NCBI GenBank assembly: GCA_913776885.1
Contig: CAJYQC010000603.1
Location: forward strand, 1 to 55,310
Source of the DNA: an uncultured Variovorax sp.
Lineage (GTDB): Bacteria > Pseudomonadota > Gammaproteobacteria > Burkholderiales > Burkholderiaceae_C
Direction: 5' to 3'
DNA: 55,310 nucleotides
This document shows, in pieces, positions 17,944 to 47,237 of the stretch. A program made the translations under genes and the position numbers. Each line of letters begins with the position of its first letter. Position 1 is the stretch's first letter. The notes under the pieces were generated by a model. That model saw only the letters and a program-made list of their open reading frames with translations. It had not been told where the DNA came from and ran no database searches.

Positions 17944-18041
17944 TTCCAGGAACACCGCGGAACCGGCTGTGCCGGGCCGCAGGTGTTGCCCCCTTCCCAA
18001 GGGGGTTGGCGAAGCGACACGCAGTGCGCGAAGCCTGGGGG
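17944..18041 (-). repeat. Dispersed intergenic repeat, type I copy 1 (reverse orientation)
   Basis: Read on the minus strand, this about 98-bp element is nearly identical to the copy at 47141-47237. It has the same left end (CCCCCAGGCTTCGCGCACT), a central C5/G5 hairpin, and a right hairpin with AACACC and GGTGTT arms and inner CCGGC/GCCGG-type pairing. It starts 16 bp after the GDT1 stop and abuts the metX promoter. It is the only type I copy in reverse orientation to its upstream gene. Confidence 0.8.
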
Positions 18042-18042
18042 A

Positions 18043-18048
18043 TATACT
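18043..18048 (+). promoter_or_regulatory. -10 box for metX
   Basis: TATACT matches the -10 consensus 5/6. Seven bases later the SAM-II aptamer begins at 18055, so the start site fits. The -35 region falls inside the repeat at 17944-18041 and matches the consensus poorly. Confidence 0.55.
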
Positions 18049-18053
18049 CCCCC

Positions 18054-18102
18054 TGCGCCGATTTGCTTCAGCTTGCGGGCGCTTGATAAATGCAGCTAAA
18101 GA
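18054..18102 (+). ncRNA. SAM-II riboswitch
   Basis: The segment follows the compact SAM-II pseudoknot. P1 is formed by GCGCC (18055-18059) and GGCGC (18078-18082). The loop begins GATTT (18060-18064). The conserved 3' part TTGATAAATGCAGCTAAAG is at 18083-18101, and an AGCT/AGCT pairing (18070-18073 with 18094-18097) is consistent with P2. SAM-II is known from proteobacterial metX/metA leaders, and metX follows here. SAM binding should lower metX-metW expression, probably through the terminator that follows. Confidence 0.85.
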
Positions 18103-18118
18103 CAGTCAGTTGGCGAAC

Positions 18119-18152
18119 AACCCGGCTCGTTTTTGGCGAGGCCGGGTTTTTT
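18119..18152 (+). terminator. Intrinsic terminator in the metX leader
   Basis: AACCCGGC and GCCGGGTT form an 8-bp stem, extended by TCG/CGA, and a T-run covers 18147-18152. It ends only 5 bases before the metX ATG and directly follows the SAM-II aptamer, so it is likely the regulated attenuator. It also occupies the position where a ribosome-binding site would be. Confidence 0.8.
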
Positions 18153-18157
18153 CATTC

Positions 18158-19333
18158 ATGTCTTCGTCGCCACCTTTGGTCGTCACTCCGCAGTCGATGC
18201 AGTTCGCAGGTCCGCTGGCCCTGCGCAGCGGCGCATCGATCAGCGACTACACGCTCGCCTTCGAAACCTACGGCACCCTGAACGCCGACCGCAGCAACGC
18301 CGTGCTCGTGTGCCATGCGCTCAACGCATCGCACCACGTCGCGGGCGTCTACCAGGGGCAGGCCCGCTCCGAGGGCTGGTGGGACAACATGGTGGGCCCG
18401 GGCAAACCACTCGACACCGACCGCTTCTTCGTGATCGGCGTCAACAACCTCGGCTCCTGCTTCGGCTCTACCGGACCGATGCACGTCAACCCTGCCACCG
18501 GCCGCGTCTACGGCGCCGACTTCCCGGTGGTGACGGTCGAGGACTGGGTCGACGCCCAGGCGGCGCTGCTCGACGCGCTCGGCATCGAGACGCTCGCCGC
18601 CGTGATGGGCGGGAGCCTGGGTGGCATGCAGGCGCTTTCTTGGACGCTGCAGTACCCCGAGCGCGTGCGCCACGCCGTGGTGGTGGCCAGCGCGCCCAAC
18701 CTCACGGCCGAGAACATCGCCTTCAACGAGGTGGCTCGCCGCGCCATCGTGACCGACCCCGACTTCCACGGCGGCCATTTCTACGAGCACGGCGTGGTGC
18801 CCAAGCGCGGCCTGCGCATCGCGCGGATGATCGGCCACATCACCTACCTCAGCGACGACGTGATGAACGCCAAGTTCGGCCGCATCCTGCGCAGCGCGGT
18901 GGAGGGCGAGAACAAGGGCGAGGTGGCGGGCGCCGATTACCGCTATTCCACGCAGGACGTCGAGTTCCAGATCGAGAGCTACCTGCGCTACCAGGGCGAC
19001 AAGTTCAGCGAGTACTTCGACGCCAACACCTACCTTCTGATCACCCGTGCGCTCGACTACTTCGACCCCGCGCGCAACCACGGCGGCAAGCTCAGCGCCG
19101 CGCTCGCACAGGCGCGCGCCAAGTTCCTGCTCGTGAGCTTCAAGACCGACTGGCGCTTCTCGCCCGCGCGCAGCCGCGAGATCGTCAAGGCACTGCTCGA
19201 CAACAGCCGCAACGTGAGCTACGCCGAGATCGACGCGCCGCACGGCCACGACGCCTTCCTGCTGGACGACGTGCGCTACATGGGCGTGGTGCGCTCCTAC
19301 TTCGAGCGTGTCGCCAAGGAGTTCCAGCAATGA
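18158..19333 (+). CDS. metX: Homoserine O-acyltransferase (acetyl- or succinyltransferase)
   Basis: MetX acylates homoserine to commit it to methionine. The 391-residue alpha/beta-hydrolase-fold protein has the nucleophile elbow GGSLGGMQ (Ser153), the acid Asp in KTDWRFSP and the His in DAPHGHDAF. It also has the family motif [12 protein letters not shown]. Whether the acyl group is acetyl or succinyl cannot be decided by eye. The ATG at 18158 has no ribosome-binding site because the terminator stem lies there; the next in-frame ATG (codon 14) also lacks one. It is followed by metW with an ATGA overlap, the standard metXW operon, controlled by the SAM-II element upstream. Confidence 0.95.
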
Positions 19334-19920
19334 GCGACCTCGAACACCAACGCCTCATCGCCGAACTCGTGCCGCAGGGCTCGCGCGTGCTCGACCTCGG
19401 CTGCGGCGACGGCGCCCTGCTCGACCTGCTGCAGCGCGAACGCGGCTGCACCGGCTACGGCGTGGAGATCGCCGACGGCAACGTGCTGCAGTGCATCCGC
19501 CGCGGCGTCGACGTGATCCAGCTCAACCTCGACGAAGGACTGGCGATGTTCGACGACGCCTCCTTCGACGTGGTGCTGCAGATCGACACGCTGCAGCACC
19601 TGCGCAATGCAGAGGTCATGCTGCGCGAGACCGCGCGCGTGGGCCGCATCGGCATCGTCGCCTTCCCCAACTTCGCGCACTGGCCCAACCGCCTGAGCGT
19701 GGCGCGCGGGCGCATGCCCGTCACGCGCCGCCTGCCCTACCAGTGGTACGACACGCCCAACATCCGCGTCGGCACCTTCAAGGACTTCGAGGTGCTGGCC
19801 GGCAAGAACAACCTTCGCATCCTCGACGCCTTCGGGCTGCAGAACGGCCGCGGCGTGCGCTGGCTGCCCAACGCGCGCGCCAGCACGGCGGTCTTCAAGT
19901 TCGAGCGCGGCGGCGGCTGA
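19330..19920 (+). CDS. metW: Methionine biosynthesis protein MetW
   Basis: The 196-residue protein has a class I SAM-dependent methyltransferase fold with motif [16 protein letters not shown] and the MetW-typical [22 protein letters not shown] and [11 protein letters not shown]. MetW is needed with MetX for full homoserine acylation in several bacteria. The gene starts inside the metX stop (ATGA), so their products are made together. Confidence 0.95.
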
Positions 19921-19927
19921 TCGCGCG

Positions 19928-20515
19928 ATGAGCTTCACGCTCGCACAGCCGGTCCACAGCGAGCTCGTCATCAAGAAGAGCCGTTTCATCGGCTGCGTGC
20001 AGCCGGTGGCCGACCGCGCGGCGGCACTGGCCGTGGTCGCCTCGCTGCGTGCCGAGCATCCCGCGGCGGCGCACGTGTGCTGGGCCCTCATGGCGGGCGG
20101 GCAGTCGGCCGCGAACGACGACGGCGAGCCCGGCGGCACCGCAGGACGTCCGATGCTGGAAGTGCTGCGCCACCAGCAGGTCGAGGGGGCGCTCGCGACC
20201 GTGGTGCGCTACTTCGGCGGCGTAAAGCTGGGCGCAGGCGGCCTCGTGCGGGCCTACACCGATGCGGTCGCGCAGGCCCTGCTCGGCGCCACGCTGGTGC
20301 CGCTCCTGCGCCAGCGCAGCCTGCGCTGCTCGGTGCCCTATGCGCTCGAAGGGCTGGTGCGGCGCGAACTCGCCGCAGCAGGCGCGACGCTCGAGGCCGT
20401 GCAGCACGGCGACGACGTGGCCTTCGCCTTCTCGCTGCCGGAGCCCGAGGCCGATGCCTTCATCGCGCGCCTCGGCGATGCTGCGCAAGGGCGCGTCGCC
20501 TGGCCGAAGGAGTGA
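19928..20515 (+). CDS. YigZ / IMPACT family protein
   Basis: The 195-residue protein has the IMPACT N-terminal domain with SRFIGCVQPV, the signature DDGEPGGTAGRPML and VRYFGGVKLGAGGLVRAY, then a small C-terminal ferredoxin-like domain. The biochemical role of the family is poorly defined; translation-related roles have been proposed. It lies 7 bp after metW and may share its transcript. Its last 56 bases overlap the end of the convergent ion-channel gene. Confidence 0.9.
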   Translation: MSFTLAQPVHSELVIKKSRFIGCVQPVADRAAALAVVASLRAEHPAAAHVCWALMAGGQSAANDDGEPGGTAGRPMLEVLRHQQVEGALATVVRYFGGVKLGAGGLVRAYTDAVAQALLGATLVPLLRQRSLRCSVPYALEGLVRRELAAAGATLEAVQHGDDVAFAFSLPEPEADAFIARLGDAAQGRVAWPKE

Positions 20516-21416
20516 GCCTCTTCGAGGGCACCGCAGGCATGGGTGCCGCGGGCTGCGCCATCGCGAGAATGCCGCGAGCCGCCACCGGCACCGCGTCGTC
20601 GTCGCTGCCCCGCCGCGCCATCTCGGCGGTCACGATGCCCGTCGGCACCGCGAGCACGCCCCAGCCCACCAGCATCATCACCGAGGCGATCGCGCGGCCC
20701 AGGTCTGTCTTGGGCACGAGGTCGCCGAATCCCACGGTGGCCATCGTCGAGATCGCCCAGTAGACCGCCACCGGAATGCTGGTGAAGCCGTGCTGCGGCC
20801 CCTCGACCACGTACATCAGCGTGCCCATGACCAGCACCACCAGCATCACGAAGCCGACGAACACGGTGATCTTCCGCCGGCTCGCCGCCACCGCCGAGAC
20901 CAGCGCGCGGTACTCGACCGAGTAGCGCGATAGTTTGAAGATCCGGAACACGCGCAGCAGGCGCAGGATGCGCACGTCGATGAGATAGCCCAGCCCCATC
21001 TCGGGCGCGAAGACCACGAGGAAGGTCGGCAGCAGCGCGAGCAGGTCGATCACGCCGTAGAAGCTCGTGGCGTAGCGCAGCGGCCTGTTCACGCAGCTCA
21101 GCCGCGCGATGTACTCCAGCGTGAAGAGGGCAGTGAACACCCACTCGAGCACGTTGAACACCGAGCGCCACTGCTCGCGGATGGACTGCACGCTGTCGAG
21201 GATCACCACCAGCACGCTGGCCACGATCACCGCGATCAGCGCGAGGTCGAACATGAGGCCCGCGCGCGTGTCGGCCTCGAAGATCACCGAGAAGAGCTTG
21301 CGGCGCCACCCGCGCGCGGGCTTGTCGAAGCGCGAGTCCGAAGAGGCGGACATGGCGCGCGATGCGGGCGTGGTGGAAGACGTGGCTGCGTCGGCTGCAG
21401 TGTTCGGGCGGGTCAT
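20460..21416 (-). CDS. Voltage-gated-type ion channel (probable K+ channel)
   Basis: The 318-residue protein has six membrane helices (about residues 50-265). The S4-like helix carries spaced arginines (DVRILRLLRVFRIFKLSRYS). The pore loop has filter STMATVGFGD; GFGD in place of GYGD is common in bacterial K+ channels. It is followed by helix S6 GWGVLAVPTGIVTAEM. N- and C-terminal tails are Ala/Ser- and Arg-rich. The start at 21416 is tentative because no ribosome-binding site is visible; a start at codon 22 is also possible. The 3' end overlaps yigZ antisense by 56 bp. Confidence 0.9.
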   Translation of the reverse strand: MTRPNTAADAATSSTTPASRAMSASSDSRFDKPARGWRRKLFSVIFEADTRAGLMFDLALIAVIVASVLVVILDSVQSIREQWRSVFNVLEWVFTALFTLEYIARLSCVNRPLRYATSFYGVIDLLALLPTFLVVFAPEMGLGYLIDVRILRLLRVFRIFKLSRYSVEYRALVSAVAASRRKITVFVGFVMLVVLVMGTLMYVVEGPQHGFTSIPVAVYWAISTMATVGFGDLVPKTDLGRAIASVMMLVGWGVLAVPTGIVTAEMARRGSDDDAVPVAARGILAMAQPAAPMPAVPSKRLTPSARRRALAQHRRGAR

Positions 21417-21530
21417 GGCGACACATTGTCGTGCGCGCAATCGACTTATTCAGTTACGCTTATTGCGCAATGAAGTGCTGCAGGCCGCGGGTGCGTTCTT
21501 ACGATAGTCCCTTTCATGAGGAGCTCCCCT

Positions 21531-22052
21531 TTGGCTACACAGTCCCCCTTCTTCGGCAAGCGTGATCGTGACACCGATTCGTTGACATCGCGCCCCGCGC
21601 CGCTCGTCGGCTCGGGCACCAACCTCTCCGGAAGCCCCGTCAATCCTTCTTCGCTCACCGCACAGCAAGGCGGCCTGAACACTCCCGCGACCGCGCCGGC
21701 CAAGGAAGGCGGCAGCAAGCTGACCGTCGGTCCCAACATCAAGCTCAAGGGCGTGGAGATCACCGATTGCGACACGCTCGTGGTCGAAGGCCTGGTCGAA
21801 GCCACCATGGACTCGCGCCTGATGCAGATCGCCGAACAGGGCGCGTTCAAGGGCTCCGCCGAGATCGACATCGCCGAGATCCGCGGCGTGTTCGACGGCA
21901 GCCTCACCGTGCGCGAGAAGCTCGTCATCCACTCGACCGGCAAGGTCACGGGCAAGATCCGCTACGGCAAGATCGTGATCGAGGAAGGCGGCCAGATCTC
22001 CGGCGAGATCAGCTTCGGCGCCGCCAAGCCCTCGCTGCAGGCTGCGGCCTGA
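21531..22052 (+). CDS. Bactofilin family (polymer-forming cytoskeletal) protein
   Basis: Bactofilins polymerise into filaments that scaffold envelope processes. A disordered Ser/Pro-rich N-terminus of about 55 residues precedes the right-handed beta-helix core (LTVGPNIKLKGVEITDCDTL, then IAEIRGVFDGSLTVREKL, GKVTGKIRYGKIVIEEGG). It totals about 173 residues from a TTG start at 21531. GAGGAG ends 7 bases before this TTG, an ideal spacing. The in-frame ATG at 21516 overlaps that ribosome-binding site and would add five residues. A type II repeat follows the stop by 7 bp. Confidence 0.88.
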   Translation: MATQSPFFGKRDRDTDSLTSRPAPLVGSGTNLSGSPVNPSSLTAQQGGLNTPATAPAKEGGSKLTVGPNIKLKGVEITDCDTLVVEGLVEATMDSRLMQIAEQGAFKGSAEIDIAEIRGVFDGSLTVREKLVIHSTGKVTGKIRYGKIVIEEGGQISGEISFGAAKPSLQAAA

Positions 22053-22059
22053 AGTCGGT

Positions 22060-22147
22060 CCCCCGGCTTTTCACTTCGCTTCGCTGCGTGTAAATCCATC
22101 CCTCGAGGGGGATGGCGCGGATCGCCTGGGGAGCGGCCCGGAGGCGC
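22060..22147 (+). repeat. Dispersed intergenic repeat, type II copy 1
   Basis: The about 88-bp element starts CCCCCGGCTTTTCACTTCG, has a central CCCTCGAGGGGG-type hairpin and ends in GAGCGGCCCGGAGGCG. It aligns along its length with 45487-45578. It begins 8 bp after the bactofilin stop, between convergent genes. Confidence 0.7.
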
Positions 22148-22163
22148 CCACGGGCGCCTTTCA
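22142..22163 (+). terminator. Possible terminator after the bactofilin gene
   Basis: GGCGCC and GGCGCC arms around a CACG loop are followed by TTTC. The T-run is short, and the 3' edge touches the end of the convergent DUF72 gene, so this is only a candidate. Confidence 0.35.
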
Positions 22164-22931
22164 CGTGGCAGGCGCGGTCCATCCAAGACGCTCCAGCAAG
22201 GCACCGGCAGCAGCCGGTGCCTTTTCCTTTGCGCCGTTGATGAAGTAGACGAACACGTCGCGCTTCTTCGGCGACGTGGCCCACCCCTGCGCGCGCTCGG
22301 CCCATGTGTCGAGGGCCTTCGGCGCATAACCCAGCTTCAGCTTGGCGTCGGCCATCATCAGCCGCGCGTAGGCGATGTCGCCCTCGGGCTCTTCGAAGGA
22401 CGGAAACTTGTCGGCGTCGGTGAACACCGTCGACACCTTGTACTTCTTCGCGAGCGCCTTGTAGGCGGGCACGATGAAGCTCTCGTGCCGCACGTCCATC
22501 ACGTGGCGCAGCGCGCGGCTGCCCTCCTTCTTCGGCAGCAGCGCGAGAAAAGCCTCGAAGTCTTCCGCGTCGAACTGCTTGGTCGGCATGAACTGCCACA
22601 CGATCGGCCCGAGCTTGTCGCCGAGCTCGGCCACGCCGCTGTCGATGAAGCGCTTGATGGAATCGCCCGCGCCCGACAGCAGCTTGCGGTTGGTCGCGAA
22701 GCGCGAGGCCTTCATCGAGAAGATGAAGTCGTCGGGCGTGTCGTCGTGCCACTTGCGGAAGGTCTCGGGCTTGAAGGTGCTGTAGTAGGTGCCGTTGATC
22801 TCGATGGCGCTGACCTTGCGGCTCGCGTAGTTGAGTTCCTTCGCGTGCGCGAGCCCCTTGGGATAGAAGTTGTCGCGCCAGGGCTCGTAGGTCCAGCCGC
22901 CAATGCCCACCTTGATGTTTGCCTTGCTCAC
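22161..22931 (-). CDS. DUF72 domain-containing protein (YecE family)
   Basis: The 256-residue protein has the DUF72 TIM-barrel features: IGGWTYEPWRDNFYP near the start, EINGTYYSTFKPETFRKW, FIFSMKASRFATN, WQFMPTKQF and VMDVRHESFIV. The function of the family is not established. The start is a GTG at 22931 with GGAGGG four bases upstream on the minus strand. It is divergent from the M20 dipeptidase. Confidence 0.92.
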   Translation of the reverse strand: MSKANIKVGIGGWTYEPWRDNFYPKGLAHAKELNYASRKVSAIEINGTYYSTFKPETFRKWHDDTPDDFIFSMKASRFATNRKLLSGAGDSIKRFIDSGVAELGDKLGPIVWQFMPTKQFDAEDFEAFLALLPKKEGSRALRHVMDVRHESFIVPAYKALAKKYKVSTVFTDADKFPSFEEPEGDIAYARLMMADAKLKLGYAPKALDTWAERAQGWATSPKKRDVFVYFINGAKEKAPAAAGALLERLGWTAPAT

Positions 22932-23026
22932 GTGGCCCTCCGGGTTGAGATCGCCCGCACTCTACGCGCGGTCGCTCCAGGGCGCAAAATGCGTCCTTTC
23001 TTTCGTCACCCGCGGAGAACCCACCG

Positions 23027-24534
<1,508 letters not shown>

Positions 24535-24538
<4 letters not shown>

Positions 24539-36329: not shown

Positions 36330-36364
36330 GACGATTGACTCTGACTGAGCGAGCGAGCGACGCC

Positions 36365-37771
36365 ATGAAAAACATCCGTTCCATCATCACCCTGGGCTGC
36401 CTCGCGGCAATCGCCGCCACGGCGGGGGCACAGGGCTACCGTCCCGGTACCGGCATCACGGACATCATGCGCGCCGGCCCGCGCCTGGGCCCGCCGCCGG
36501 CGCGTCCGTCCACGGCGCCCGCGGCGGCGCCGGTGCAGCGCTCCGCCGAATTCATCGTCGCGCTGGTCAACTCGGAGCCGATCACCAACACCGACGTGCA
36601 GTCGCGCGTGACGCGGCTCATCAAGGAGAACCCCGACGCCGAGCGCGTGCCCCGCGGCGAGCTCACGAGGCTCGTGCTGGAGCGCCTGATCACCGAGCGC
36701 GCGCAACTGCAGCTCGCGAAGGAAAACGGCATCAAGGTCGACGAGGTTGCCATCGACCAGGCCGAGCAGACCGTGGCGCGCCAGAACGAGATCAGCCTGG
36801 TCGAACTGCGCCGCCGCGTGGCTGCCGAGGGCATCGCGCAGCAGGACTTCCGCAACGACCTGCGCGACCAGCTGCTGCTCACCCGACTGCGCGACCGCGA
36901 GGTCGAGTCGAAGGTCAAGGTCAGCGACGCCGAGGCCGACGAATACCTGCGCGACCAGCGCAACCAGTCGGTGAAGAACGTCGCGCTCGAGAACCTCAAC
37001 CTCGCGCAGGTGCTGGTGGCCGTTCCCGAGAACGCCACCGACGCACAGATCGCCGCCGCCCAGAAGAAGGCGCAGGACATCGCCCAGCGCGCCCGTGCCG
37101 GCGAAGACTTCGCCAAGCTGGTGCAGGAGAACTCCGACTCGCCCGACCGCGCCAACGGCGGCGCCATCGGCATGCGAAGCGCCGACCGCTACCCCCCGCT
37201 GTTCGTCGAGGCGACGCAGTCGACCGCGGTGAACGGCATCGCCGGGCCGGTGCGTTCGAGCGCCGGCTTCCACGTGCTGAAGGTGCTGGCCAAGGCCCAG
37301 ATCGGTTCGGGCGACGCCACCGTCACGCAGACCCAGGTGCGCCACATCCTGCTGCTCAACGATCCCAAGCGCACGACCGCTCAGGCGGTTGCGCAACTGG
37401 CCGAGTTCAAGCGCCGCATCCAGGCCGGCACGGCCGACTTCGCCAGCCTCGCCCGCGACAACTCGCAGGACGGCAGCGCCAAGCAGGGCGGCGACCTCGG
37501 CTGGTCGCGCCCCGGCCAGTTCGTGCCCGAATTCGAGGAGGCCATGGACCGCCTCTCGCCGGGCCAGATCAGCGACCCCGTGGTCTCGCGCTTCGGCGTG
37601 CACCTGATCCAGGTGGTGGGCCGCCGCGATTCCAAGCTCAGCCAGTCGGAGCAGCGCGAAGCCGCGCGCGCCGCACTGCGCGAGCAGCGCGTGGAGGAGG
37701 CCTTCACCACCTGGGTGCAGGAAGTGCGCGCCCGCGCCTACGTCGAATACCGCGATCCGCCGCAGTCCTGA
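36365..37771 (+). CDS. surA: Periplasmic chaperone/peptidyl-prolyl isomerase SurA
   Basis: SurA escorts outer-membrane proteins, including LptD, across the periplasm. The 468-residue protein has a signal peptide (MKNIRSIITLGCLAAIAATAGAQ) and the SurA N-domain (IVALVNSEPITNTDVQSRV). Two parvulin domains follow (about 180-280 with ARAGEDFAKLVQENSDSP; about 300-400 with VRHILLLNDPKRTT and GDLGWSRPGQFVPEFEEAM), and a C-terminal helix. The ATG at 36365 begins the signal peptide; an in-frame TTG upstream is less likely. A type I repeat follows the stop. Confidence 0.95.
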   Translation: MKNIRSIITLGCLAAIAATAGAQGYRPGTGITDIMRAGPRLGPPPARPSTAPAAAPVQRSAEFIVALVNSEPITNTDVQSRVTRLIKENPDAERVPRGELTRLVLERLITERAQLQLAKENGIKVDEVAIDQAEQTVARQNEISLVELRRRVAAEGIAQQDFRNDLRDQLLLTRLRDREVESKVKVSDAEADEYLRDQRNQSVKNVALENLNLAQVLVAVPENATDAQIAAAQKKAQDIAQRARAGEDFAKLVQENSDSPDRANGGAIGMRSADRYPPLFVEATQSTAVNGIAGPVRSSAGFHVLKVLAKAQIGSGDATVTQTQVRHILLLNDPKRTTAQAVAQLAEFKRRIQAGTADFASLARDNSQDGSAKQGGDLGWSRPGQFVPEFEEAMDRLSPGQISDPVVSRFGVHLIQVVGRRDSKLSQSEQREAARAALREQRVEEAFTTWVQEVRARAYVEYRDPPQS

Positions 37772-37778
37772 TGGCACA

Positions 37779-37872
37779 CCCACAGGCTGCGCGCACTCCG
37801 GGCCGCTTCGCCAACCCCCTCGCAGGGGGCAACGCCAGCGGCACGCCAAATCCGGTTCCGCGGTGTTCCCGG
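37779..37872 (+). repeat. Dispersed intergenic repeat, type I copy 2
   Basis: This about 94-bp copy, more diverged at its left end, shares CGCTTCGCCAACCCCCTCGC, the C5/G5 hairpin and the right end TTCCGCGGTGTTCC with the copies at 17944 and 47141. It starts 8 bp after the surA stop and fills most of the gap to rsmA. Confidence 0.75.
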
Positions 37873-37909: not shown

Positions 37910-38680
37910 ATGGCTCAGCACATCGCGAGGAAGCGGTTCGGCCAGCATTTCCTGTCCGACGGCGGGATCATCGATGCGATCGTGCGCGAGATCGCGCCGC
38001 AGCCCGGTGACGCCATGGTCGAGATCGGCCCGGGGCTCGCCGCGCTGACCCAGCCGCTGGTGGAGCGTCTGGGCCGGCTCACCGTGATCGAGCTCGACCG
38101 CGACCTGGCGAAGCGCCTGCGCGAGCATCCCCAGCTCGACGTGGTCGAGTCGGACGTGCTCAAGGTCGACTTCGCCGAGCTGGCCGCGAGGTTTCCGGCC
38201 GGCAAGCCGCTGCGCGTGGTGGGCAACCTGCCTTACAACATCTCCACGCCCATCCTCTTCCATCTGCTGGGCTGCGCCCATCTGGTCGCCGACCAGCACT
38301 TCATGCTGCAGAAGGAAGTGATCGACCGCATGGTGGCCAGCCCCGCCACGTCCGACTACAGCCGCCTGAGCGTGATGCTGCAGTGGCGCTACGAGATGCA
38401 GAACGTGCTGTTCGTGCCGCCGGAGAGCTTCGATCCGCCGCCGCGCGTCGACAGCGCCGTGGTGCGGATGGTGCCGCTGGCGACGCCGCCTGCCGTCGAT
38501 GAGCGCCGCCTGGGCGAGATCGTGCAGGTCGCTTTCAGCCAGCGCCGCAAGCTGCTGCGCCACACGCTGGGCAAATGGCTCCAGGAGCACGGCTTTTCCG
38601 GCGACTTCGACACGCAGCGGCGGGCCGAGGAGGTGCCGGTGGCCGACTACGTGGCACTGGCCCAGGCAGTGCCCCAATGA
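37910..38680 (+). CDS. rsmA: 16S rRNA (adenine1518/1519-N6)-dimethyltransferase
   Basis: RsmA (KsgA) dimethylates two adjacent adenines at the 3' end of 16S rRNA. The 256-residue protein has [21 protein letters not shown] motif [17 protein letters not shown], the catalytic NLPYNIS and the C-terminal [16 protein letters not shown]. The lptD-surA-rsmA order is usual; pdxA, found between surA and rsmA in enterics, is absent. A strong terminator begins at its stop codon. Confidence 0.96.
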
Positions 38681-39436: not shown

Positions 39437-39846
39437 GGCGCAATCCGTCTGAAGCTCGCGTAGTGGTCTGCGGTGTACCAGCAGGCCTCGGGCGCGGTGC
39501 GCTGTTCGCCGCCGCAGACGATCCGCCGTGCGCCGCGGTCGCGCGACCCGGGCGTCGCTACCGTGTACTCACGGTAGTGGCCACGGCGGGCGGGTGGCAA
39601 CAGACGTTCGCGATTGCCGAATACCGAGCCGTCCTTGTCATACCGGAAGGGGCCGCCGCTGAGGATGGCCTGGTAGGTCCACTGACCCTGCACCGGCAGC
39701 TCTGCCAGTGCGATGGTTTCATCGGCGGAAGTCTTGCCGGCGCCGAACCATCCGCGGGCCTCGGCCCCCGTCGTCAACGTCACCAGCATCAGACTGGTGA
39801 GCGCAAACTTTGTGACAGAGGACGTGATCGAGGCGTAAGCCGCCAT
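39433..39846 (-). CDS. Secreted barnase/N1-type ribonuclease
   Basis: The 137-residue protein begins with a signal peptide (hydrophobic FALTSLMLVTLTTGAEA, cleavage near 30). The mature part is a microbial RNase of the barnase/RNase Sa group. The catalytic residues appear intact: Glu93 in HYREYTV, arginines 102-108 in TPGSRDRGARRIV, and His128 in TADHYASFRRI. Two cysteines, 111 and 122, could form a disulfide outside the cell. ATG at 39846; an in-frame TTG four codons upstream is possible. It is coupled to barstar. The role may be competition or nutrient scavenging. Confidence 0.9.
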   Translation of the reverse strand: MAAYASITSSVTKFALTSLMLVTLTTGAEARGWFGAGKTSADETIALAELPVQGQWTYQAILSGGPFRYDKDGSVFGNRERLLPPARRGHYREYTVATPGSRDRGARRIVCGGEQRTAPEACWYTADHYASFRRIAP

Positions 39847-40026
39847 GGGGCACCACAAGAAAAGAGCGGGGGGTCGAATCGGCGATCAACGTCGGGGTTA
39901 ACCCGCAAATTCAAGCCCGCGAGTGTGCACCACGCTGGCGAAAATAGCAAGCGACTGCCCAAAGTTTGAGCAGTCGCGAGGCTATCGAATGGCTTTTCAA
40001 GTTGGCGGCCACTCTCGCCAGAGGGC

Positions 40027-42375
40027 TTATCTTTCGGCGTTCGCGTCGGCCACTGTCAAAGCTGTCATATTGACGATGCGCCGAACAGTCGCACTGGCCG
40101 TGAGAATATGCACAGGTTTGGCCGCACCAAGCAGGACCGGGCCGATCGCGATGTTGCCGCCGGCCGCCGTCTTGAGCAGGTTGTAGGAAATGTTGGCCGC
40201 GTCGATGTTCGGGAAAACCAGCAGATTGGCGTCCCCCGCCAGCGCGCTGTGCGGCATGACGACCGCGCGCTGCTTGCTGTCGAGTGCCACGTCGCCGTGC
40301 ATTTCACCGTCCACCTCGAGCCAGGGCGCCTGCACGCGCAGCAGGTCGAGCGTCTTGCGCATCTTGATGGCGCTGGGGCCGTTGCTGGTGCCGAAGTTGG
40401 AATGCGACAGCAGCGCCGCCTTCGGCTTGAGGCCGAAGCGCATCATCTCTTCGGCCGCCATGGTGGTGATCTCGGCCAGTTCCTCGGGCGAGGGGTCGTA
40501 GTTGACGTGCGTGTCGACCAGGAACACCTGGCGGTCGGGCAGCAGCAGGCCATTCATGCAAGCGTACACCGGCACGTCCTGCGGGGTGCTCTCGCAGCCG
40601 CCGGGGCGCTTTCCGATGACCTGGTCGATGTAGTGCAGGTGGTTGGCGGTGGTGCCCCAGGTGCCGCAGATCAGGCCGTCGACCTCGCCCTTGTGCAGCA
40701 GCATCGAGCCGATCAGCGTCAGGCGCCGGCGCATCTCGATCTTGGCGACCTGCACCGTCACACCCTTGCGCTCGGTCATGCGGTGGTAGGTCTGCCAGAA
40801 CTCGCGGTAGCGGTGGTCCTGCTCGACGTTGACCACGTCGTAATCCAGCTCCTCCTTCAGGCGCAGGCCGAATTTCTCGATGCGCTGGGCGATGATGGCC
40901 GGCCGGCCGATCAGCGTCGGGCGCGCCACGCCCTCGTCGACCACGATCTGCGCCGCGCGCAGCACGCGCTCTTCCTCGCCTTCCGAGTAGGCCACGCGCT
41001 TCTTGCTCGCGCGCCGGGCGGCGTCGAAGATGGGTTTCATCGTGGTGCCCGAGGCGTAGACGAAGCTCTGCAGCTTGTCGCGATAGGCGTCCATGTCCTT
41101 GATGGGGCGCTGCGCCACGCCGCTTTCCTCGGCCGCCTTGGCCACCGCTGGCGCGATCTTCATCATCAGGCGCGGGTCGAAGGGCTTGGGGATCAGGTAT
41201 TCGGGGCCGAAGCTGAGCTTTTCACCGACGTAGGCGGCGGCCACGCGCTCGCTCTGCTCGGCCTGGGCCAGGTCGGCGATGGCGTGCACCGCGGCGATCT
41301 CCATCTCGTCGGTGATCGTCGTCGCGCCGCAGTCGAGCGCGCCGCGGAAGATGTACGGGAAGCACAGGACGTTGTTGACCTGGTTCGGGTAGTCGGTGCG
41401 GCCGGTGGCCATGATCACGTCGCTGCGCACCGCGTGGGCGTCTTCCGGCGCGATCTCGGGATTGGGGTTGGCCAGCGCGAAGATCACCGGGCGCTGGGCC
41501 ATCTTGGCCACCATGGCGGGCTTGAGCACGCCGCCTGCGGACAGGCCCAGGAACACGTCGGCGCCTTCGATCACCTCGCCGAGCGTGCGCGCTTCGGTCT
41601 TCTGCATGAACTGGCGCTTGTCGTCGTCCATCAGCTCGGTGCGGCCCTCGTAGACCACACCGGCCAGGTCGGTGACGAACACGTTCTCGCGCTTCAGGCC
41701 GACCTTGAGCAGCAGGTTCAGGCAGGCCAGCGCCGCGGCGCCCGCGCCGGAGGCGACCAGCTTGACTTCCTCGATCTTCTTGCCGGCCACCTTCAGGCCG
41801 TTGACCATTGCAGCCGCCACGGTGATGGCCGTGCCGTGCTGGTCGTCGTGGAAGACCGGGATCTTCATGCGCTTGCGCAGCTCGCGCTCGACGTAGAAGC
41901 AGTCGGGGGCCTTGATGTCTTCCAGGTTGACGGCGCCGAAGGTGGGCTCGAGCGAAGCGATGATGTCCACCAGCTTGGCCGGGTCCTTCTCGTCGATCTC
42001 GATGTCGAACACGTCGACACCCGCGAACTTCTTGAAGAGGACGCCCTTGCCTTCCATCACCGGCTTGGAGGCCAGCGGGCCGATGTCGCCCAGGCCCAGC
42101 ACGGCGGTGCCGTTGCTGATGACGGCCACGAGGTTGCCCCTGGAGGTGTACTTGAAGGCGTTGGCCGGGTCCTTGACGATCTCCTCGCAGGGGGCGGCCA
42201 CGCCGGGGGAGTAGGCCAGCGACAGGTCGCGCTGGTTGACCATCTGCTTCGTCGCCGCGATGGCGATCTTGCCGGGAACGGGAAACTCGTGGTACTCGAG
42301 GGCGGCACGGCGCAGTTCTGCGCGCTTGTCTTCGGGCGTGGGAGTCGAGGGGGTCGAGGTGGTCGAATCTGACAT
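40027..42375 (-). CDS. maeB: NADP-dependent malic enzyme (hybrid MaeB type)
   Basis: This enzyme decarboxylates malate to pyruvate with NADP reduction, linking the TCA cycle to NADPH supply. The 782-residue protein has a malic N-domain ([16 protein letters not shown], then [16 protein letters not shown]), the NAD-binding domain ([18 protein letters not shown]) and a C-terminal phosphotransacetylase-like domain from about residue 430 ([22 protein letters not shown]), which is regulatory in this type. Start ATG at 42375 with AGGAG 8 bases upstream. It is divergent from the SPFH gene. Confidence 0.96.
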
Positions 42376-42555
42376 GTGCCGTAGCTCCTGGTGGCGCTTC
42401 TTCTGGGGGCGCCGATTGTAGACCTCGCGCATGACGCCCTAGGCCGCATGGCCAGGGCCTCCCATGACCAATAGCACGGGTGTTTTCCCGGGCCCGTGTG
42501 GCAATATGCACGGTTCGGACAGAACCTGAAAAAACCCCAAGAGGAGCGACCGACC

Positions 42556-43605
42556 ATGGCCCTGATGGATTTCATCAAGAAGCAGTTCATCGACATCATC
42601 CAGTGGACCGAGACCGGCGACGGCACGCTGGCCTGGCGCTTCCCGATGGCGGAGATGGAAATCCAGAACGGCGCCTCGCTCACGGTGCGCGAATCGCAGG
42701 TCGCCGTCTTCGTCAACGAAGGCAAGGTGGCCGACGTGTTCGGCCCGGGCATGTACAAGCTCACGACGCAGACGCTGCCCGTGCTCACGTACCTGAAGAA
42801 CTGGGACAAGCTCTTCGAGTCCCCCTTCAAGAGCGACGTCTACTTCTTCAGCACCCGGCAGCAGGTCGACCAGAAGTGGGGCACGCCCCAGCCGATCACC
42901 ATCCGCGACAAGGACTTCGGCGCCGTGCGCCTGCGCGCCTTCGGCAACTACTCCTTCCGCATCGGCGATGCCAGGGCCTTCCACACCGAGATCTCCGGCA
43001 CGCGCGACACCTACACCGTGGCCGACCTCGACGGCCAGCTGCGCGGCCTGGTGCTGCAGAACATCAGCAACGCCATCGCCTCCAGCGGCGTGCCCTTCCT
43101 CGACCTCGCGGCCAACCAGATCCAGTTCGCGCAGGCGCTCGCCGCCCAGCTGGTGCCCGAGTTCGAGAAGATCGGCATCAAGCTCGAGAACATCACGGTC
43201 CAGAACGTCTCGCTGCCCGAGGAGCTGCAGAAGATCCTCGACCAGAAGATCGGCATGGGCATGGTCGGCAACGACATGGGCAAGTTCATGCAGTACCAGA
43301 CCGCGCAGGCGATTCCCAAGTTCGCCGAGGGCGCGGCCGGCGGCGGCGGTGTCGCTGGCGACGCGATGGGACTTGGCGCGGGCGTGGCGCTCGGCCAGGT
43401 GCTGGCGCAGAACCTCGCGCAGGGCCTGAGCCCCAACGCCGCGGCTGCCGCTGCAGCCCAGCAGCAGCAACCGTCGGTGGCCGTGGTGAGCGCTGCCGAC
43501 GTGATGACCACGCTCGAGAAGCTCGGCGAACTCAAGACCAAGGGCATCCTCACCCAGGAAGAGTTCGACGCCAAGAAGGCCGAACTGCTCAAGAAGCTGG
43601 TCTGA
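42556..43605 (+). CDS. SPFH domain protein with C-terminal SHOCT domain (YdjI-like)
   Basis: The 349-residue protein carries an SPFH/band-7 domain (about 30-270, with LTVRESQVAVFVNEGKVADVFGPGMYKL and IKLENITVQNVSLPEELQK). A Gly/Ala- and Gln-rich linker and a SHOCT module at the end follow (TLEKLGELKTKGILTQEEFDAKKAELLKKL). There is no transmembrane segment, so it likely assembles at the membrane surface. It is first in a five-gene co-directional run with DUF4178, DUF350 and a polyamine synthase. GAGGAG precedes the ATG at 42556 by 9 bases. Confidence 0.9.
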   Translation: MALMDFIKKQFIDIIQWTETGDGTLAWRFPMAEMEIQNGASLTVRESQVAVFVNEGKVADVFGPGMYKLTTQTLPVLTYLKNWDKLFESPFKSDVYFFSTRQQVDQKWGTPQPITIRDKDFGAVRLRAFGNYSFRIGDARAFHTEISGTRDTYTVADLDGQLRGLVLQNISNAIASSGVPFLDLAANQIQFAQALAAQLVPEFEKIGIKLENITVQNVSLPEELQKILDQKIGMGMVGNDMGKFMQYQTAQAIPKFAEGAAGGGGVAGDAMGLGAGVALGQVLAQNLAQGLSPNAAAAAAAQQQQPSVAVVSAADVMTTLEKLGELKTKGILTQEEFDAKKAELLKKLV

Positions 43606-43697
43606 CCCCAGGCTTCGCGCACTTCGTGTCGCCCTCTCTCGTCCCTTGCAGGGGGCGATGCCAGCAGCCGGGCATAGCCGGCTGCGCGGTATCTCCC
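43606..43697 (+). repeat. Dispersed intergenic repeat, type I copy 3 (diverged)
   Basis: The left end CCCCAGGCTTCGCGCACTTCGTGTCGC is shared with the 47141 copy. The right half has diverged but keeps an inverted-repeat layout (GCAGCCGGGC...AGCCGGCTGC). It begins directly after the SPFH stop codon. Confidence 0.7.
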
Positions 43698-43728
43698 GCC
43701 TCGTGCGTCGTGTCTTCAGCCGCGTGCC

Positions 43729-45213
43729 ATGGCTGAGGAAAACGGCAACCAACGCTACTACCGGGCGCCCTGCCCCGGCTGCGGCGCGCCGGTCGAATTC
43801 CGCTCGGCGCAGTCGACCCATGCGGTCTGCCCCTACTGCCAGAGCACCGTCGTGCGCCAGGGCGACACGCTCGCGCGCACCGGCAAGATGGCGGAGCTGT
43901 TCGACGACTTCAGCCCGCTGCAGCTGTTCGCCGCCGGCCGCATCCAGGACAAGCCCTTCACGCTGATCGGCCGGCTGCAGTACACCTACCCCGGTGGCCG
44001 CTGGACCGAATGGATCGCCGCGCTCGACGGCGACCGCACCGCCATCCTCAGTGAGGACAACGGCGCCTACGTCTTCGCCCTGCCCTTCGACCTGCAGCGC
44101 GCGGCGCCGCCGCCCGGCGACCTGCGCGTGGGCGCCACCAGCGCCTTCGCCGGCCAGAGCTACACCGTCACCTCGAACGAGCAGGTGGCGCTGACCTCGG
44201 CGCAGGGCGAGCTGCCGCACCTGCCCGAGCTCGGCCGGCCCTTCGCGATGGTCGAGCTGCGCAACGACCGCGGGCTGGTGCTCAGCATCGACTACGGCAC
44301 CGCCAGGCCCAGCGCCTACCTCGGCCGCTCGGTACAGCTGGAAGACCTGCAGCTGACCGGCCTGCGCGCCGAGTCCGCCAAGGACGAAAAAGGCCGCAGC
44401 TTCAACTGCCCCAACTGCGGCTCGCCCGTCACCGTCAACCTCGCCGACAGCAAGAGCATCACCTGCGGCTCGTGCCACAGCATCATCGACCTGTCGCAGG
44501 GCATCGGTGGCGAGCTCAAGCACGCTACTCAGGACGAGCCCGTGCGCCCGCTCATCGCGCTAGGCAGCATGGGCCAGCTGCAGGGCGCGCAGTGGCAGGT
44601 GGTGGGCTTCCAGCACCGCATGGGCAGCGAGCCCGGCGACGACGAGCACTTCGGCTGGGACGAATACCTGCTCTACAACAACAAGCGCGGCTTCAGCTTC
44701 CTGGTGGACGCCGAGGACGGCTGGAGCATGGTCAAGCCGACCACCGGCGCGCCGGTGATGGCCGAGAACGGCACGAGCGCCACCTACCTCGGCAAGCGCT
44801 ACCAGCAGCAGTACGCCTACAACGCCGAGACCACCTACGTGGCGGGCGAGTTCTACTGGCAGGTCGAGCGCGGCCAGAAGACCTTCAACCGCGACTTCGC
44901 CAGCGGCGGCGCGCTGCTGTCGATGGAGCGCTCGGCCAACGAGCTCACCTGGTCCGCGGGCAGCAAGATCGACAGTGGCGCGGTGGCCACTGCCTTCAAG
45001 CTCGACGCGAAGAAGGACATGTTCAAGCGCACCGACGCGCTGCCGGTGAGCGCGGCCTCGGGGCTGGGCTGCGGCACCATCATCCTCATCATCGTCGTGA
45101 TCATCATCGTGCTGATCATCCTGAGCACCTGCAGCAGCGGCGGATCGTCCAGCGGCTACCGCAGCTCGGGCGGCTCCTACGGCGGCTATTCCAGTGGCGG
45201 CGGCCACAAATGA
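43729..45213 (+). CDS. DUF4178 domain-containing zinc-ribbon membrane protein
   Basis: The 494-residue protein has two zinc ribbons (C15/C18/C34/C37 and C227/C230/C246/C249). Each is followed by a DUF4178 beta-rich domain (about 50-205 and 270-420, the second with GWDEYLLYNNKRGFSFLV). A single C-terminal membrane helix (450-468, TIILIIVVIIIVLIILSTC) and a Ser/Gly/Tyr tail end it. The molecular role is unknown; DUF4178 genes tend to sit with DUF350 and polyamine-synthase genes, as here. The bulk of the protein would be cytoplasmic. Confidence 0.9.
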   Translation: MAEENGNQRYYRAPCPGCGAPVEFRSAQSTHAVCPYCQSTVVRQGDTLARTGKMAELFDDFSPLQLFAAGRIQDKPFTLIGRLQYTYPGGRWTEWIAALDGDRTAILSEDNGAYVFALPFDLQRAAPPPGDLRVGATSAFAGQSYTVTSNEQVALTSAQGELPHLPELGRPFAMVELRNDRGLVLSIDYGTARPSAYLGRSVQLEDLQLTGLRAESAKDEKGRSFNCPNCGSPVTVNLADSKSITCGSCHSIIDLSQGIGGELKHATQDEPVRPLIALGSMGQLQGAQWQVVGFQHRMGSEPGDDEHFGWDEYLLYNNKRGFSFLVDAEDGWSMVKPTTGAPVMAENGTSATYLGKRYQQQYAYNAETTYVAGEFYWQVERGQKTFNRDFASGGALLSMERSANELTWSAGSKIDSGAVATAFKLDAKKDMFKRTDALPVSAASGLGCGTIILIIVVIIIVLIILSTCSSGGSSSGYRSSGGSYGGYSSGGGHK

Positions 45214-45267
45214 CGGCGACGATGTGCGCGATGCTCTCTCTAACTACTGCTACGACTGGAGGTCCCC

Positions 45268-45486
45268 ATGGGATTTGAATGGCTGAAACCGGGCGTGGTC
45301 CTCGGATCGCTCGTGTACGCGCTGATCGGCGTCGTGATCTTCTGGCTCTGCTTCCTGATCATCGACAAGATCACGCCCTACGACCTGTGGGGCGAGATCG
45401 TCGAGAAGCAGAACGTGGCGTTGGGCCTGGTGGTCGCCGCGATGAGCCTCGGCATCAGCATCATCGTCGCGGCAGCGATCCATTAG
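45268..45486 (+). CDS. DUF350 domain-containing membrane protein
   Basis: The 72-residue protein has two membrane helices (about 10-32 and 48-70) separated by the short DUF350 loop KITPYDLWGEIVEKQNVALG. E. coli YjfL belongs to the same family. It could partner the DUF4178 protein in the membrane. GGAGG lies 7-8 bases before the ATG. A type II repeat begins at the base after the stop. Confidence 0.92.
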   Translation: MGFEWLKPGVVLGSLVYALIGVVIFWLCFLIIDKITPYDLWGEIVEKQNVALGLVVAAMSLGISIIVAAAIH

Positions 45487-45578
45487 CCCCCCGGCCTTGC
45501 ACTTCGCTTCGCTACGCGTCGTTCGCCGCCCCCCGCGGGGGAGGCGCGTTCCGCCTCGGGGCGGCCCGGCGGCGACCG
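45487..45578 (+). repeat. Dispersed intergenic repeat, type II copy 2
   Basis: The about 92-bp element starts CCCCCCGGCCTTGCACTTCG, has a central CCCCCGCGGGGG hairpin and ends GGGGCGGCCCGGCGGCG. It aligns with the copy at 22060-22147. It fills almost all of the gap between the DUF350 gene and the polyamine synthase. Confidence 0.7.
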
Positions 45579-45586
45579 CCTGATCC

Positions 45587-47134
45587 ATGGATACCCCTGA
45601 CAGTCCGCTGCCGGCCAAAGGCCCGCAGCCCGTGGAGATCGCGCTGCTCGCCAGCGTGTTCGTGGTCGCCGCCTGCGGGCTGGTCTACGAGCTCACCGCG
45701 GCCGCCCTCAGCTCCTACCTGCTGGGCGACTCGGTGCTGCAGTTCAGCACCATCATCGGCACCTACCTGTTTGCCATGGGCGTGGGCTCGTGGCTTTCAC
45801 GCTACTTCGAGCGGCAGCTGCCCGCGCACTTCCTTCGCATCGAACTGCTGGTGGCGCTGATCGGCGGTGCGCTGCCGGCGGTCCTGTTCCTGGCCAACGC
45901 CTACGTGCCCGGCGCGTTCCGGCTGCTGCTGTACGGGCTGGTGATGGTCGTGGGCACGCTGGTGGGGCTCGAGATCCCGCTGGTGATGCGCATCCTGAAG
46001 CGCAACATCGTGCTGAAGAACCTGGTGTCGCAGGTGCTCACCTTCGACTACCTCGGCGCGCTGGCGGTGTCGGTGGCGTTCCCGCTGATCCTGGTGCCGC
46101 AGCTCGGCATGATCCGCACCGGCCTGCTGTTCGGCTTCATGAACGCGGCGGTGGCGGTGTGGGCGCTGTGGCTCTTCCGCCATGAGCTGCGCCGCGTGGG
46201 CGCGCATGTCGTCGCGTGCGTTCTCGCGCTGGGGGCGCTGGTGGGGGCTTTCGTCGGCGCCGACCACATCACCACACTGGCTGAAGACAAGTTCTACCAG
46301 GACCGCATCGTCTTCAGCGCCACCTCGCCCTACCAGCGCATCGTGGTCACGCGCGGGCTGCTGGGGCATCGGCTCTTCCTCAACGGCAACCTGCAGTTCG
46401 CCGAGCGCGACGAATATCGCTATCACGAGGCGCTCGTGCATCCGGTGATGGCCGCCCAGGGCGCGCCGAAGAAGGTGGCGGTGCTCGGCGGCGGCGACGG
46501 CATGGCGGTGCGCGAGATCCTCAAGTACCCGTCGGTCGAATCGATCACGCTGGTGGAGCTCGACCCGAACATGACCAGGCTCTTCACGGAGCACGAGACG
46601 CTGGCCGCGCTGAACGGGCATTCGCTCTCGTCGCCGAAGGTGAAGATCGTCAACACCGATGCCTTCCAGTGGCTGCAGCAGCCTGGCGACATGTACGACG
46701 TGATCGTGGTCGACTTTCCCGATCCCACCAACTTCGCCATCGGCAAGCTCTACACCAACAGCTTCTACGCGCTGCTCGAGAAGCGCCTGTCGGCCAGCGG
46801 CTATGCGGTGATCCAGACCACCTCGCCGCTCGTGGCGCGCAAGAGCTTCTGGACCGTGGCGACCACCATCGAGTCGGTGGGCCTGCGCGCCACGCCGTAC
46901 CACGCGCATGTGCCCAGCTTCGGCGAGTGGGGCTACATCATCGCCAGCCGCAGACCCTACCGCATGCCCGATGCGCTGCCGCCGGGCCTGCGCTTTCTCT
47001 CGCCGACCACCCTGCCGCTGATGTTCGACTTTCCGCTGGACATGGCGCGCGTGCCGGCCGAAGTGAATCGGCTCTCGAACCAGGTCCTCGTCACCACCTA
47101 CGAGCAGGAGTGGGGCAAGGTCATGGCGCATTAA
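45587..47134 (+). CDS. Membrane-fused polyamine aminopropyltransferase (spermidine synthase-like)
   Basis: The first about 225 of 515 residues form about seven membrane helices (from ALLASVFVVAACGLVYELTAAALSSYLLG on). The rest is a spermidine synthase-type domain: YQRIVVTRG, NLQFAERDEYRYHE, VAVLGGGDGMAVREIL for binding decarboxylated SAM (about 300) and VDFPDPTNFAIGKLY with the catalytic Asp. It should transfer aminopropyl groups to a polyamine at the inner membrane. No SAM decarboxylase is in the window. Confidence 0.92.
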   Translation: MDTPDSPLPAKGPQPVEIALLASVFVVAACGLVYELTAAALSSYLLGDSVLQFSTIIGTYLFAMGVGSWLSRYFERQLPAHFLRIELLVALIGGALPAVLFLANAYVPGAFRLLLYGLVMVVGTLVGLEIPLVMRILKRNIVLKNLVSQVLTFDYLGALAVSVAFPLILVPQLGMIRTGLLFGFMNAAVAVWALWLFRHELRRVGAHVVACVLALGALVGAFVGADHITTLAEDKFYQDRIVFSATSPYQRIVVTRGLLGHRLFLNGNLQFAERDEYRYHEALVHPVMAAQGAPKKVAVLGGGDGMAVREILKYPSVESITLVELDPNMTRLFTEHETLAALNGHSLSSPKVKIVNTDAFQWLQQPGDMYDVIVVDFPDPTNFAIGKLYTNSFYALLEKRLSASGYAVIQTTSPLVARKSFWTVATTIESVGLRATPYHAHVPSFGEWGYIIASRRPYRMPDALPPGLRFLSPTTLPLMFDFPLDMARVPAEVNRLSNQVLVTTYEQEWGKVMAH

Positions 47135-47140
47135 ATGCTC

Positions 47141-47237
47141 TCCCCCAGGCTTCGCGCACTTCGTGTCGCTTCGCCAACCCCCTCGCCGGGGGCAACACCT
47201 GCGGCCCGCCGGAGCCGGTTCCGCGGTGTTCCTGGAA
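47141..47237 (+). repeat. Dispersed intergenic repeat, type I copy 4 (reference copy)
   Basis: This about 97-bp copy is the clearest: left end TCCCCCAGGCTTCGCGCAC, CTTCGCCAACCCCCTCGCC with the C5/G5 hairpin, then AACACC...GGTGTT and GCGG...CCGC arms around GCCGG. It starts 7 bp after the aminopropyltransferase stop and ends 13 bp before the next start codon. Confidence 0.8.

What the first reader, a model, noticed from the sequence alone, without database searches (positions are those of the whole stretch)
17944..47237. Type I dispersed repeat (about 95 bp, at least four copies), placed right beside stop codons
Copies at 17944-18041 (reversed), 37779-37872, 43606-43697 and 47141-47237 share a left end (CCCCAGGCTTCGCGCACTTCG), a central C5/G5 hairpin and a right hairpin with AACACC/GGTGTT arms. 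Each forward copy starts 1-8 bp after a stop codon, and the reversed one lies 16 bp after one. The tight placement and two-hairpin structure suggest an mRNA 3'-end or inter-cistronic RNA element, or a mobile palindromic unit with target preference. I do not know a published name for it.
Basis: seen in the sequence. Interest (0 to 1): 0.7.

Follow-up and report, generated by a model that had tools for sequence, protein, structure and literature searches.

The report
Three-hairpin repeat placed behind stop codons
A roughly 100-base DNA repeat that folds into three hairpins sits, mostly in one direction, directly behind the stop codons of genes in Variovorax and related bacteria, which suggests a spreading element that works in the tail of messenger RNA rather than random repeat DNA.

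Summary
All four window copies are confirmed. The window's genome holds at least 150 copies (a cap). All 61 sampled genomes of the genus match, as do 103 of 141 genera sampled in the family, many only in part. Of 98 own-genome copies examined, 75 start within 15 nt of a same-strand stop codon and 12 sit behind another copy in a head-to-tail array. In 112 copies from named Variovorax contigs it is 94. Background is 3-5%. Random placement of same-strand copies in their own gaps would give 29.7 of 81 and 32.0 of 95; 72 and 91 were observed. Three hairpins covary, across genera too. Orthologous junctions are filled in some species and empty in others. It is probably the Variovorax form of 'BRE' (Hot et al. 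2011), whose BRE section gives no stop-codon rule; sequences could not be compared. By the tests made it is neither a RAYT-linked REP nor an intrinsic terminator. Best reading: a portable stop-proximal RNA element in 3' UTRs and between operon genes. Function is inferred.

The parts
17944..18050 (-). element copy 1, reversed; its 3' end lies 15 nt behind the stop of the GDT1-family gene; leader plus three hairpins
   Evidence: covariance model 113.6 bits; orthologous and also reversed in L196 and L268
37770..37874 (+). element copy 2 (model match, first 2 bases belong to the stop), between surA and ksgA; core CCCACAGG from 37779
   Evidence: 91.4 bits; site filled in some relatives and empty in others
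43596..43700 (+). element copy 3 (model match; 43596-43605 is still coding plus stop), core CCCCAGG from 43606 directly behind the TGA of the Band 7/SHOCT gene
   Evidence: 73.0 bits, most divergent of the four
47133..47237 (+). element copy 4 (model match, first 2 bases belong to the stop), between a spermidine-synthase-family gene and an amine-oxidase-family gene; used as search query
   Evidence: 120.6 bits; filled/empty polymorphism
17926..17928 (+). TAA stop of the GDT1-family gene 17305-17928
37769..37771 (+). TGA stop of surA (36335-37771)
43603..43605 (+). TGA stop of the Band 7/SHOCT gene (42496-43605)
47132..47134 (+). TAA stop of the spermidine-synthase-family gene (45587-47134)
37910..38680 (+). 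ksgA, next gene downstream of copy 2, 35 nt behind the model match

Best explanation
It is a high-copy interspersed repeat that acts as RNA. Each copy is about 100 nt: a C-rich leader (consensus GGCWCNCCCCC) followed by three hairpins. It lies in the sense direction 0-13 nt behind a stop codon, so hairpin 1 stands roughly where the front edge of a terminating ribosome would be (inference). Most likely it works as a portable 3'-UTR/inter-cistronic structure: the hairpins stop 3'-to-5' exonucleases that come in from cleaved or terminated downstream RNA, and they shape ribosome termination or recycling, so that the upstream gene's message is stabilised relative to the genes behind it. Shown: copy number, orientation, stop-codon anchoring, conserved pairing, presence/absence at orthologous sites, sharing of some sites between genera. 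Inferred: the RNA-level role and its direction. Unknown: how it spreads; gene conversion or an unidentified enzyme.
For: Anchoring: 75 of 98 own-genome copies at most 15 nt behind a same-strand stop, 12 behind another copy in an array; apart from arrays none lies behind a same-strand stop at more than 15 nt. Named Variovorax set: 94 of 112. Other genera: 35 of 39 at most 15 nt, all 39 in the direction of the upstream gene. Four families: 31 of 61, plus 19 array members. Random placement in the same gaps gives 29.7 of 81 and 32.0 of 95 against 72 and 91 (same-strand copies with both neighbours called). Structure: 14 of 29 pairs with both-side changes and 86 cells against 11.4 in shuffles; other genera 23 of 29 pairs, 71 cells against 8.0; four families 19 of 29, 127 against 21.2. 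Hairpin 1 changes sequence between genera but keeps pairing. At least four copies, seen by eye in the tails, stand in front of a separate intrinsic terminator. Orthologous copies average 92% identity against 89% for the upstream CDS and 75% for the 3' spacer (62 pairs, not independent). Sites behind guaB-type and sucB-type gene ends recur in several genera. Published context, seen only as passages that cite it: REPs near a stop stall ribosomes (Liang 2015) and REPs block exonucleases (Khemici and Carpousis 2004).
Against: No expression data. Site turnover among close species (24 of 29 readable surA|ksgA junctions lack it) says that no single site strictly needs it. Eight of 98 and 12 of 112 copies have the upstream gene on the other strand, some reversed behind a stop. 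In family f4 genus g207 anchoring is weaker: of 23 copies 4 are anchored, 13 are array members (8 of these behind a first copy that is not anchored) and 6 are neither. Folded alone, sense copies are not strongly better than shuffles (z -0.16 to -2.34), and the antisense strand of the 47141 copy folds more stably than the sense strand (-52.3 against -42.4 kcal/mol). Covariation would also arise if a DNA hairpin were recognised by a recombinase. The identity comparison is biased: copies were found by similarity, pairs under 60% element identity were dropped, and 24 of 62 pairs concern the one site at 47134. The 98 own copies are the better-scoring part of at least 150.
Confidence: 0.5

Rival explanations
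1. Target-choosing mobile repeat without host function: the insertion step itself favours the stop-codon neighbourhood in one orientation, and the hairpins are kept because the mobilising enzyme reads them.
For: Filled/empty orthologous sites, several with the stop at the same place; 15 of 4716 between-locus pairs in the own genome are at least 97% identical and one pair is identical, which fits recent spread or gene conversion. The 27 copies with the highest model scores hold none of the 8 exceptions; Fisher p 0.10, and the cut at 27 was chosen after seeing where the first exception ranks, so this is weak.
Against: No flanking direct repeats beyond chance; no linked transposase found (Y1 type only); I know of no enzyme that reads stop codons in DNA; some sites are shared between genera.
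Confidence: 0.3
2. It is a REP mobilised by a RAYT (Y1 tyrosine transposase), as in Enterobacteriaceae and Pseudomonas.
For: High copy, palindromic, extragenic, near stops; one Y1_Tnp gene in the own genome.
Against: No element within 1.5 kb of the 11 Y1_Tnp loci of element-bearing genomes. Y1_Tnp is found in 10 of 15 element-bearing genomes and in 10 of 15 genomes without a strict-filter element match (one of these under the cut-off), so presence does not follow the element. No GTAG/GTGG head, about 100 nt with three hairpins, arrays head-to-tail.
Confidence: 0.05
3. It is an intrinsic transcription terminator.
For: GC-rich hairpins behind stop codons.
Against: No T-run after hairpin 3 in 87 aligned tails (copies with a canonical right end only); it lies inside gene strings such as surA|ksgA; separate terminators follow it at some places.
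Confidence: 0.04
4. Placement by elimination: random insertions survive only in the narrow room between operon genes.
For: Many gaps are short: median spacer behind the element 37 and 50 nt.
Against: The same-gap null predicts less than half of the observed anchoring; in gaps with 60 nt or more of free room 29 of 38 and 46 of 50 are still anchored; the orientation bias is not explained.
Confidence: 0.05

Closest known systems
BRE, Beta-proteobacterial repeat element (Hot et al. 2011, PMC3110155; abstract, the BRE section in full, other passages by term search)
   Same: about 90 bp, average GC 69%, chromosomal, tandem arrays of variable number, Comamonadaceae plus a few other betaproteobacteria, partial matches of 40-60 bp, a 70-80-nt transcript over one copy in that paper's Northern blots
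   Different: The section lists at most 29 copies per genome and no Variovorax, gives no stop-codon rule and no covarying structure, and says that some copies lie within coding sequences. The sequence is not in the held text, so identity is inferred from description.
REP/BIME with RAYT (E. coli, Pseudomonas; PMC2817692, PMC12306157 and PMC5082802, passages only)
   Same: hundreds of extragenic structured repeats; a share of E. coli REPs within 15 nt of a stop (260 of 496 in an earlier study as quoted in PMC12306157; 446 of 4,072 in that paper's own count)
   Different: REPs in the quoted table are short single palindromes with GTAG/GTGG-type heads and a RAYT; here about 100 nt, three hairpins, one direction, no RAYT link
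MITE-like repeats (ERIC, NEMIS/Correia, RUP; named in PMC3110155, their anatomy recalled)
   Same: short, non-coding, dispersed, between genes
   Different: no target duplication detected here; strict orientation behind stops

Membership tests
BRE (Hot et al. 2011) | sequence match to the published repeat | not testable with these tools
BRE (Hot et al. 2011) | unit of about 75-91 bp, GC about 69%, tandem arrays | tested here: met
   model matches mostly 83-110 nt with leader and tail (one of 65), GC 0.62-0.84; arrays of 2-5
BRE (Hot et al. 2011) | taxonomic spread: Comamonadaceae widely, few other families | tested here: met
   103 of 141 genera in the family of the window's genome; order-wide 11 of 300 genomes, 5 of them outside the family, in 4 genera (strict filters, genomes unnamed)
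BRE (Hot et al. 2011) | copies between a gene and convergent lexA (a Bordetella locus) | tested here: inconclusive
   8 LexA-domain loci from 7 genomes: one element match, about 0.8 kb upstream of the LexA domain on the same strand, not convergent; none known to be Bordetella
REP/RAYT | linked RAYT gene flanked by the repeat | tested here: not met
   0 matches at 11 Y1_Tnp loci; 5 of 15 element-bearing genomes have no Y1_Tnp match
REP/RAYT | short palindrome with GTAG/GTGG-type head | tested here: not met
   alignments, by eye
REP/RAYT | location within 15 nt of a stop codon in a share of copies | tested here: met
   75 of 98, 94 of 112; higher than the quoted E. coli shares
MITE | target-site duplication | tested here: not met
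   leader versus the 18 nt behind the element: mean common string 3.35 observed, 3.45 in shuffled pairs (116 pairs); old copies could have lost it
intrinsic terminator | T-run behind the hairpin | tested here: not met
   tail composition of 87 copies with a canonical right end
Rfam families | match to a curated covariance model | tested here: not met
   window at gathering scores and five loci at E up to 1: no match on the element

The most novel reading that the evidence does not exclude
A stop-codon-homing element: new copies are placed at translation termination sites by an RNA-level process (for example joining to mRNA cut at the ribosome's stop codon, then copying back into DNA), so that a mobile repeat has a target defined by the genetic code and provides a ready-made 3' UTR.
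Probability: 0.1. Interest if true: 0.92.

Novelty: new variant of a known kind. Interest (0 to 1): 0.62.

Why it matters
Interspersed repeats are usually treated as clutter. Here at least 150 copies in one genome, with relatives across much of a family and into other families of the order, follow one rule: sense direction, directly behind a stop codon, three conserved hairpins. That makes the old question of whether REP-like repeats are parasites or mRNA parts testable, because operon junctions with and without the element exist in closely related species. It would also give a ready catalogue of genes whose message tails may be set by a movable part.

Tried and rejected
RAYT/REP filing: rejected. 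Intrinsic terminator: rejected. Tight-gap by-product: not sufficient. Target-site duplication and duplicated start codon (suggested by ATG in the leaders: 33 of 98 against a shuffled mean of 20.5, maximum 31): not supported by the pairwise test. Phage or plasmid carriage: no match in 50,697 phage records, one stretch in the viral contigs for one exact pattern, 7 plasmid records, 5 Variovorax and 2 Comamonadaceae. lexA synteny as a proxy for Bordetella BRE: inconclusive. A 400-kb tract of another Variovorax genome gave one weak match (28 bits), so density is uneven; not followed. Exceptions among the best-scoring copies: 0 of 27 against 8 of 71, p 0.10, with a cut chosen after the fact; not decisive.

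Rows left out or handled: the 98 own copies come from loci picked off the upper part of the hit lists, not from all 150 or more. In one search, 39 of 43 model matches were used (one cut by a contig end and the three weakest left out). In one search, 97 of the 117 loci were used; of the 20 non-Variovorax ones 15 were searched and five (L265, L266, L278, L283, L285) were not. In one search pairs with element identity under 0.6 were dropped and 24 of 62 pairs concern one site. Anchored counts include overlaps of gene call and element: -1, one at -29, L208 (-8) and L050 (-13), L303 (-15). Gene calls are from my own codon-usage predictor trained on the window, not an annotation; starts are less certain than stops. 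The three 'no upstream CDS' copies were inspected: L023 follows a TGA in a frame open to the contig edge, L138 follows an element remnant, L015 is unresolved; the main counts leave them out. In one search the script's label 'empty' also caught neighbouring array copies and local artefacts; I used only junctions checked by eye.

Literature searches behind 'no stop-codon rule in print for this element': and the BRE section read; supplements were not available and most subscription journals are not held.

Full report
Observation. The stop-codon spacings are right. Besides the C5/G5 hairpin and the AACACC/GGTGTT hairpin there is a left hairpin. Rfam has no model that matches it.

Copy number and spread. 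BLAST with the 47141 copy found 52 places in the window's genome (40 candidates scored). A covariance model from 41 copies (R1) found 150, the cap, all with E of 1.1e-15 or lower. All 61 sampled genomes of the genus match. In the family, 153 of 250 genomes and 103 of 141 genera match; distant genera often match only the right two hairpins. With a broader model (R2) the order-wide search found 11 of 300 genomes under strict filters, five of them outside the family. Phage records: none. Plasmids: 7 records. One 400-kb tract of another Variovorax chromosome gave a single weak match.

Placement. I predicted genes with a simple codon-usage caller trained on the window and measured the distance from the upstream stop to the C-run. 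Own genome, 98 copies: 75 within 15 nt behind a same-strand stop (distances -1 to 13), 12 behind another copy in an array, 8 with the upstream gene on the other strand, 3 without an upstream gene in the locus (one search suggests that two of the three fit the rule). Apart from arrays none lies behind a same-strand stop at more than 15 nt. In the window 3.4% of non-coding positions and orientations qualify. Named Variovorax loci, 112 copies: 94 within 15 nt (one an overlap of 29 nt), 12 with the upstream gene on the other strand, 3 same-strand farther away, 2 unknown, 1 array; background 4.7%. Other genera, 39 of 43 matches used: all 39 in the direction of the upstream gene, 35 within 15 nt, 3 at 17-18, 1 at 58. 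Four families, 61 copies: 31 within 15 nt, 19 array members, 5 same-strand farther away, 6 opposite or unknown; in genus g207 eight of the 13 array members stand behind a first copy that is not anchored. Placing each same-strand element at random in its own gap would give 29.7 of 81 and 32.0 of 95; 72 and 91 were observed. In gaps with at least 60 nt of free room it is 29 of 38 and 46 of 50. So short gaps do not explain it.

The exceptions are informative. Of the 12 in the named set, 7 have the element's 3' end 15-36 nt behind a stop of the other strand, and 8 have its 5' end within 13 nt of a predicted start on the other strand (three of the eight are one orthologous site). The antisense leader reads TGGGGGAG, close to a Shine-Dalgarno sequence (by eye). 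Of the 8 own-genome exceptions, 4 are reversed, 15-31 nt behind an opposite-strand stop, the window copy at 17944 among them; that copy's 5' end is 155 nt from the next predicted gene.

Structure. In 98 own copies 97.4% of pair cells form standard pairs; 14 of 29 pairs have both-side changes, and 86 cells carry them against 11.4 in shuffles and at most 34 when partners are slid. In 43 copies, mostly of other genera: 98.1%, 23 of 29 pairs, 71 cells against 8.0 in shuffles and at most 24 slid. In 61 copies of four families (59 distinct): 98.0%, 19 pairs, 127 against 21.2 and at most 30 slid. These alignments were fitted to the model, which leans towards the structure, but the controls stay far below. 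Hairpin 1 has different sequences in different genera and still pairs. Against this, single copies fold only modestly better than shuffles, and the antisense strand of one copy folds more stably than the sense strand. Covariation cannot tell an RNA hairpin from a DNA hairpin read by an enzyme.

Turnover. At surA|ksgA, among the 30 best-matching loci of 100 searched genomes, 4 carry an intact element (own included), 1 a decayed one, 24 have at most 23 nt between the genes, and 1 was unreadable. At the 47134 site 13 are filled (own included), 14 have 6 nt or less, 1 holds a remnant, 1 unrelated sequence, and 1 was unreadable but aligned as filled. Among other held loci I checked five more filled/empty pairs by eye in which the stop is at the same place; in one a terminator follows it in the empty form. 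Genomes at 94-95% flank identity can differ. In the own genome 15 of 4716 between-locus pairs are at least 97% identical and one pair is identical, which fits recent spread or gene conversion. Yet some sites are old: the site behind genes ending NYRA[D/E] is used in four genera; the one tested, L039, is guaB, and three of the four share similar sequence behind the element. The site behind sucB-type ends is used in two other genera and Variovorax. Orthologous copies are more alike (92%) than the upstream coding sequence (89%) and the spacer behind them (75%) in 62 pairs; the element beats the coding sequence in 47 of 62 (with the biases given above).

Mechanism. The element is not a terminator: no T-run, a place between surA and ksgA, and separate terminators behind it in at least four cases. 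It is not RAYT-linked. Its fixed place means that hairpin 1 begins roughly 6-19 nt behind the stop, near the front edge of a terminating ribosome (inference from recalled footprint sizes). Published work on E. coli REPs, seen here only as quoted by others, gives two fitting activities: barrier to 3'-5' exonucleases, and interference with ribosomes when within 15 nt of a stop. I therefore commit to a portable 3'-UTR/inter-cistronic RNA element, at 0.5, with stop-directed insertion without host function as the main rival at 0.3.

What is known. Hot et al. 2011 described BRE, about 90 bp, in Bordetella and several Comamonadaceae, tandem and variable in number, with a 70-80-nt transcript over one copy. 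Size, GC, arrays and taxonomic spread agree; the sequence could not be compared. The section read gives no stop-codon rule and no structure, and in the held library only that paper carried the element's name together with its abbreviation (one search found no other paper on it). Hence 'new variant of a known kind', with the anchoring rule as the new part.

Noticed in passing
17169-17346 (+): Mn2+ riboswitch (yybP-ykoY, RF00080, 63.4 bits) in front of a GDT1-family cation antiporter gene whose stop is followed by the reversed element.
   Followed up: partly
L039 2102-3577 (-), and the same gene end in L042, L043, L046: The element sits directly behind guaB (shown for L039, inferred from the C-terminus for the others) in four genera, and behind sucB in L033, with the same gene end in L044.
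   Followed up: partly
L152-L171 (G041 1.0-1.4 Mb): 400 kb of another Variovorax chromosome with only one weak element match: uneven distribution along the chromosome.
   Followed up: no
16378-16650: Dense short coding repeats (start-to-start 9-21 nt) in a predicted minus-strand gene.
   Followed up: no
L295 985-1587 (-): Five near-identical element copies head to tail at a 129-nt period in a genome of another family; the first is 20 nt behind a stop.
   Followed up: no
element copies, sense strand: 179 of 210 copies hold no stop triplet in any sense frame (mean 0.16 against 1.45 in a mononucleotide shuffle of one consensus); the copies are related, so this may be one inherited trait.
   Followed up: partly
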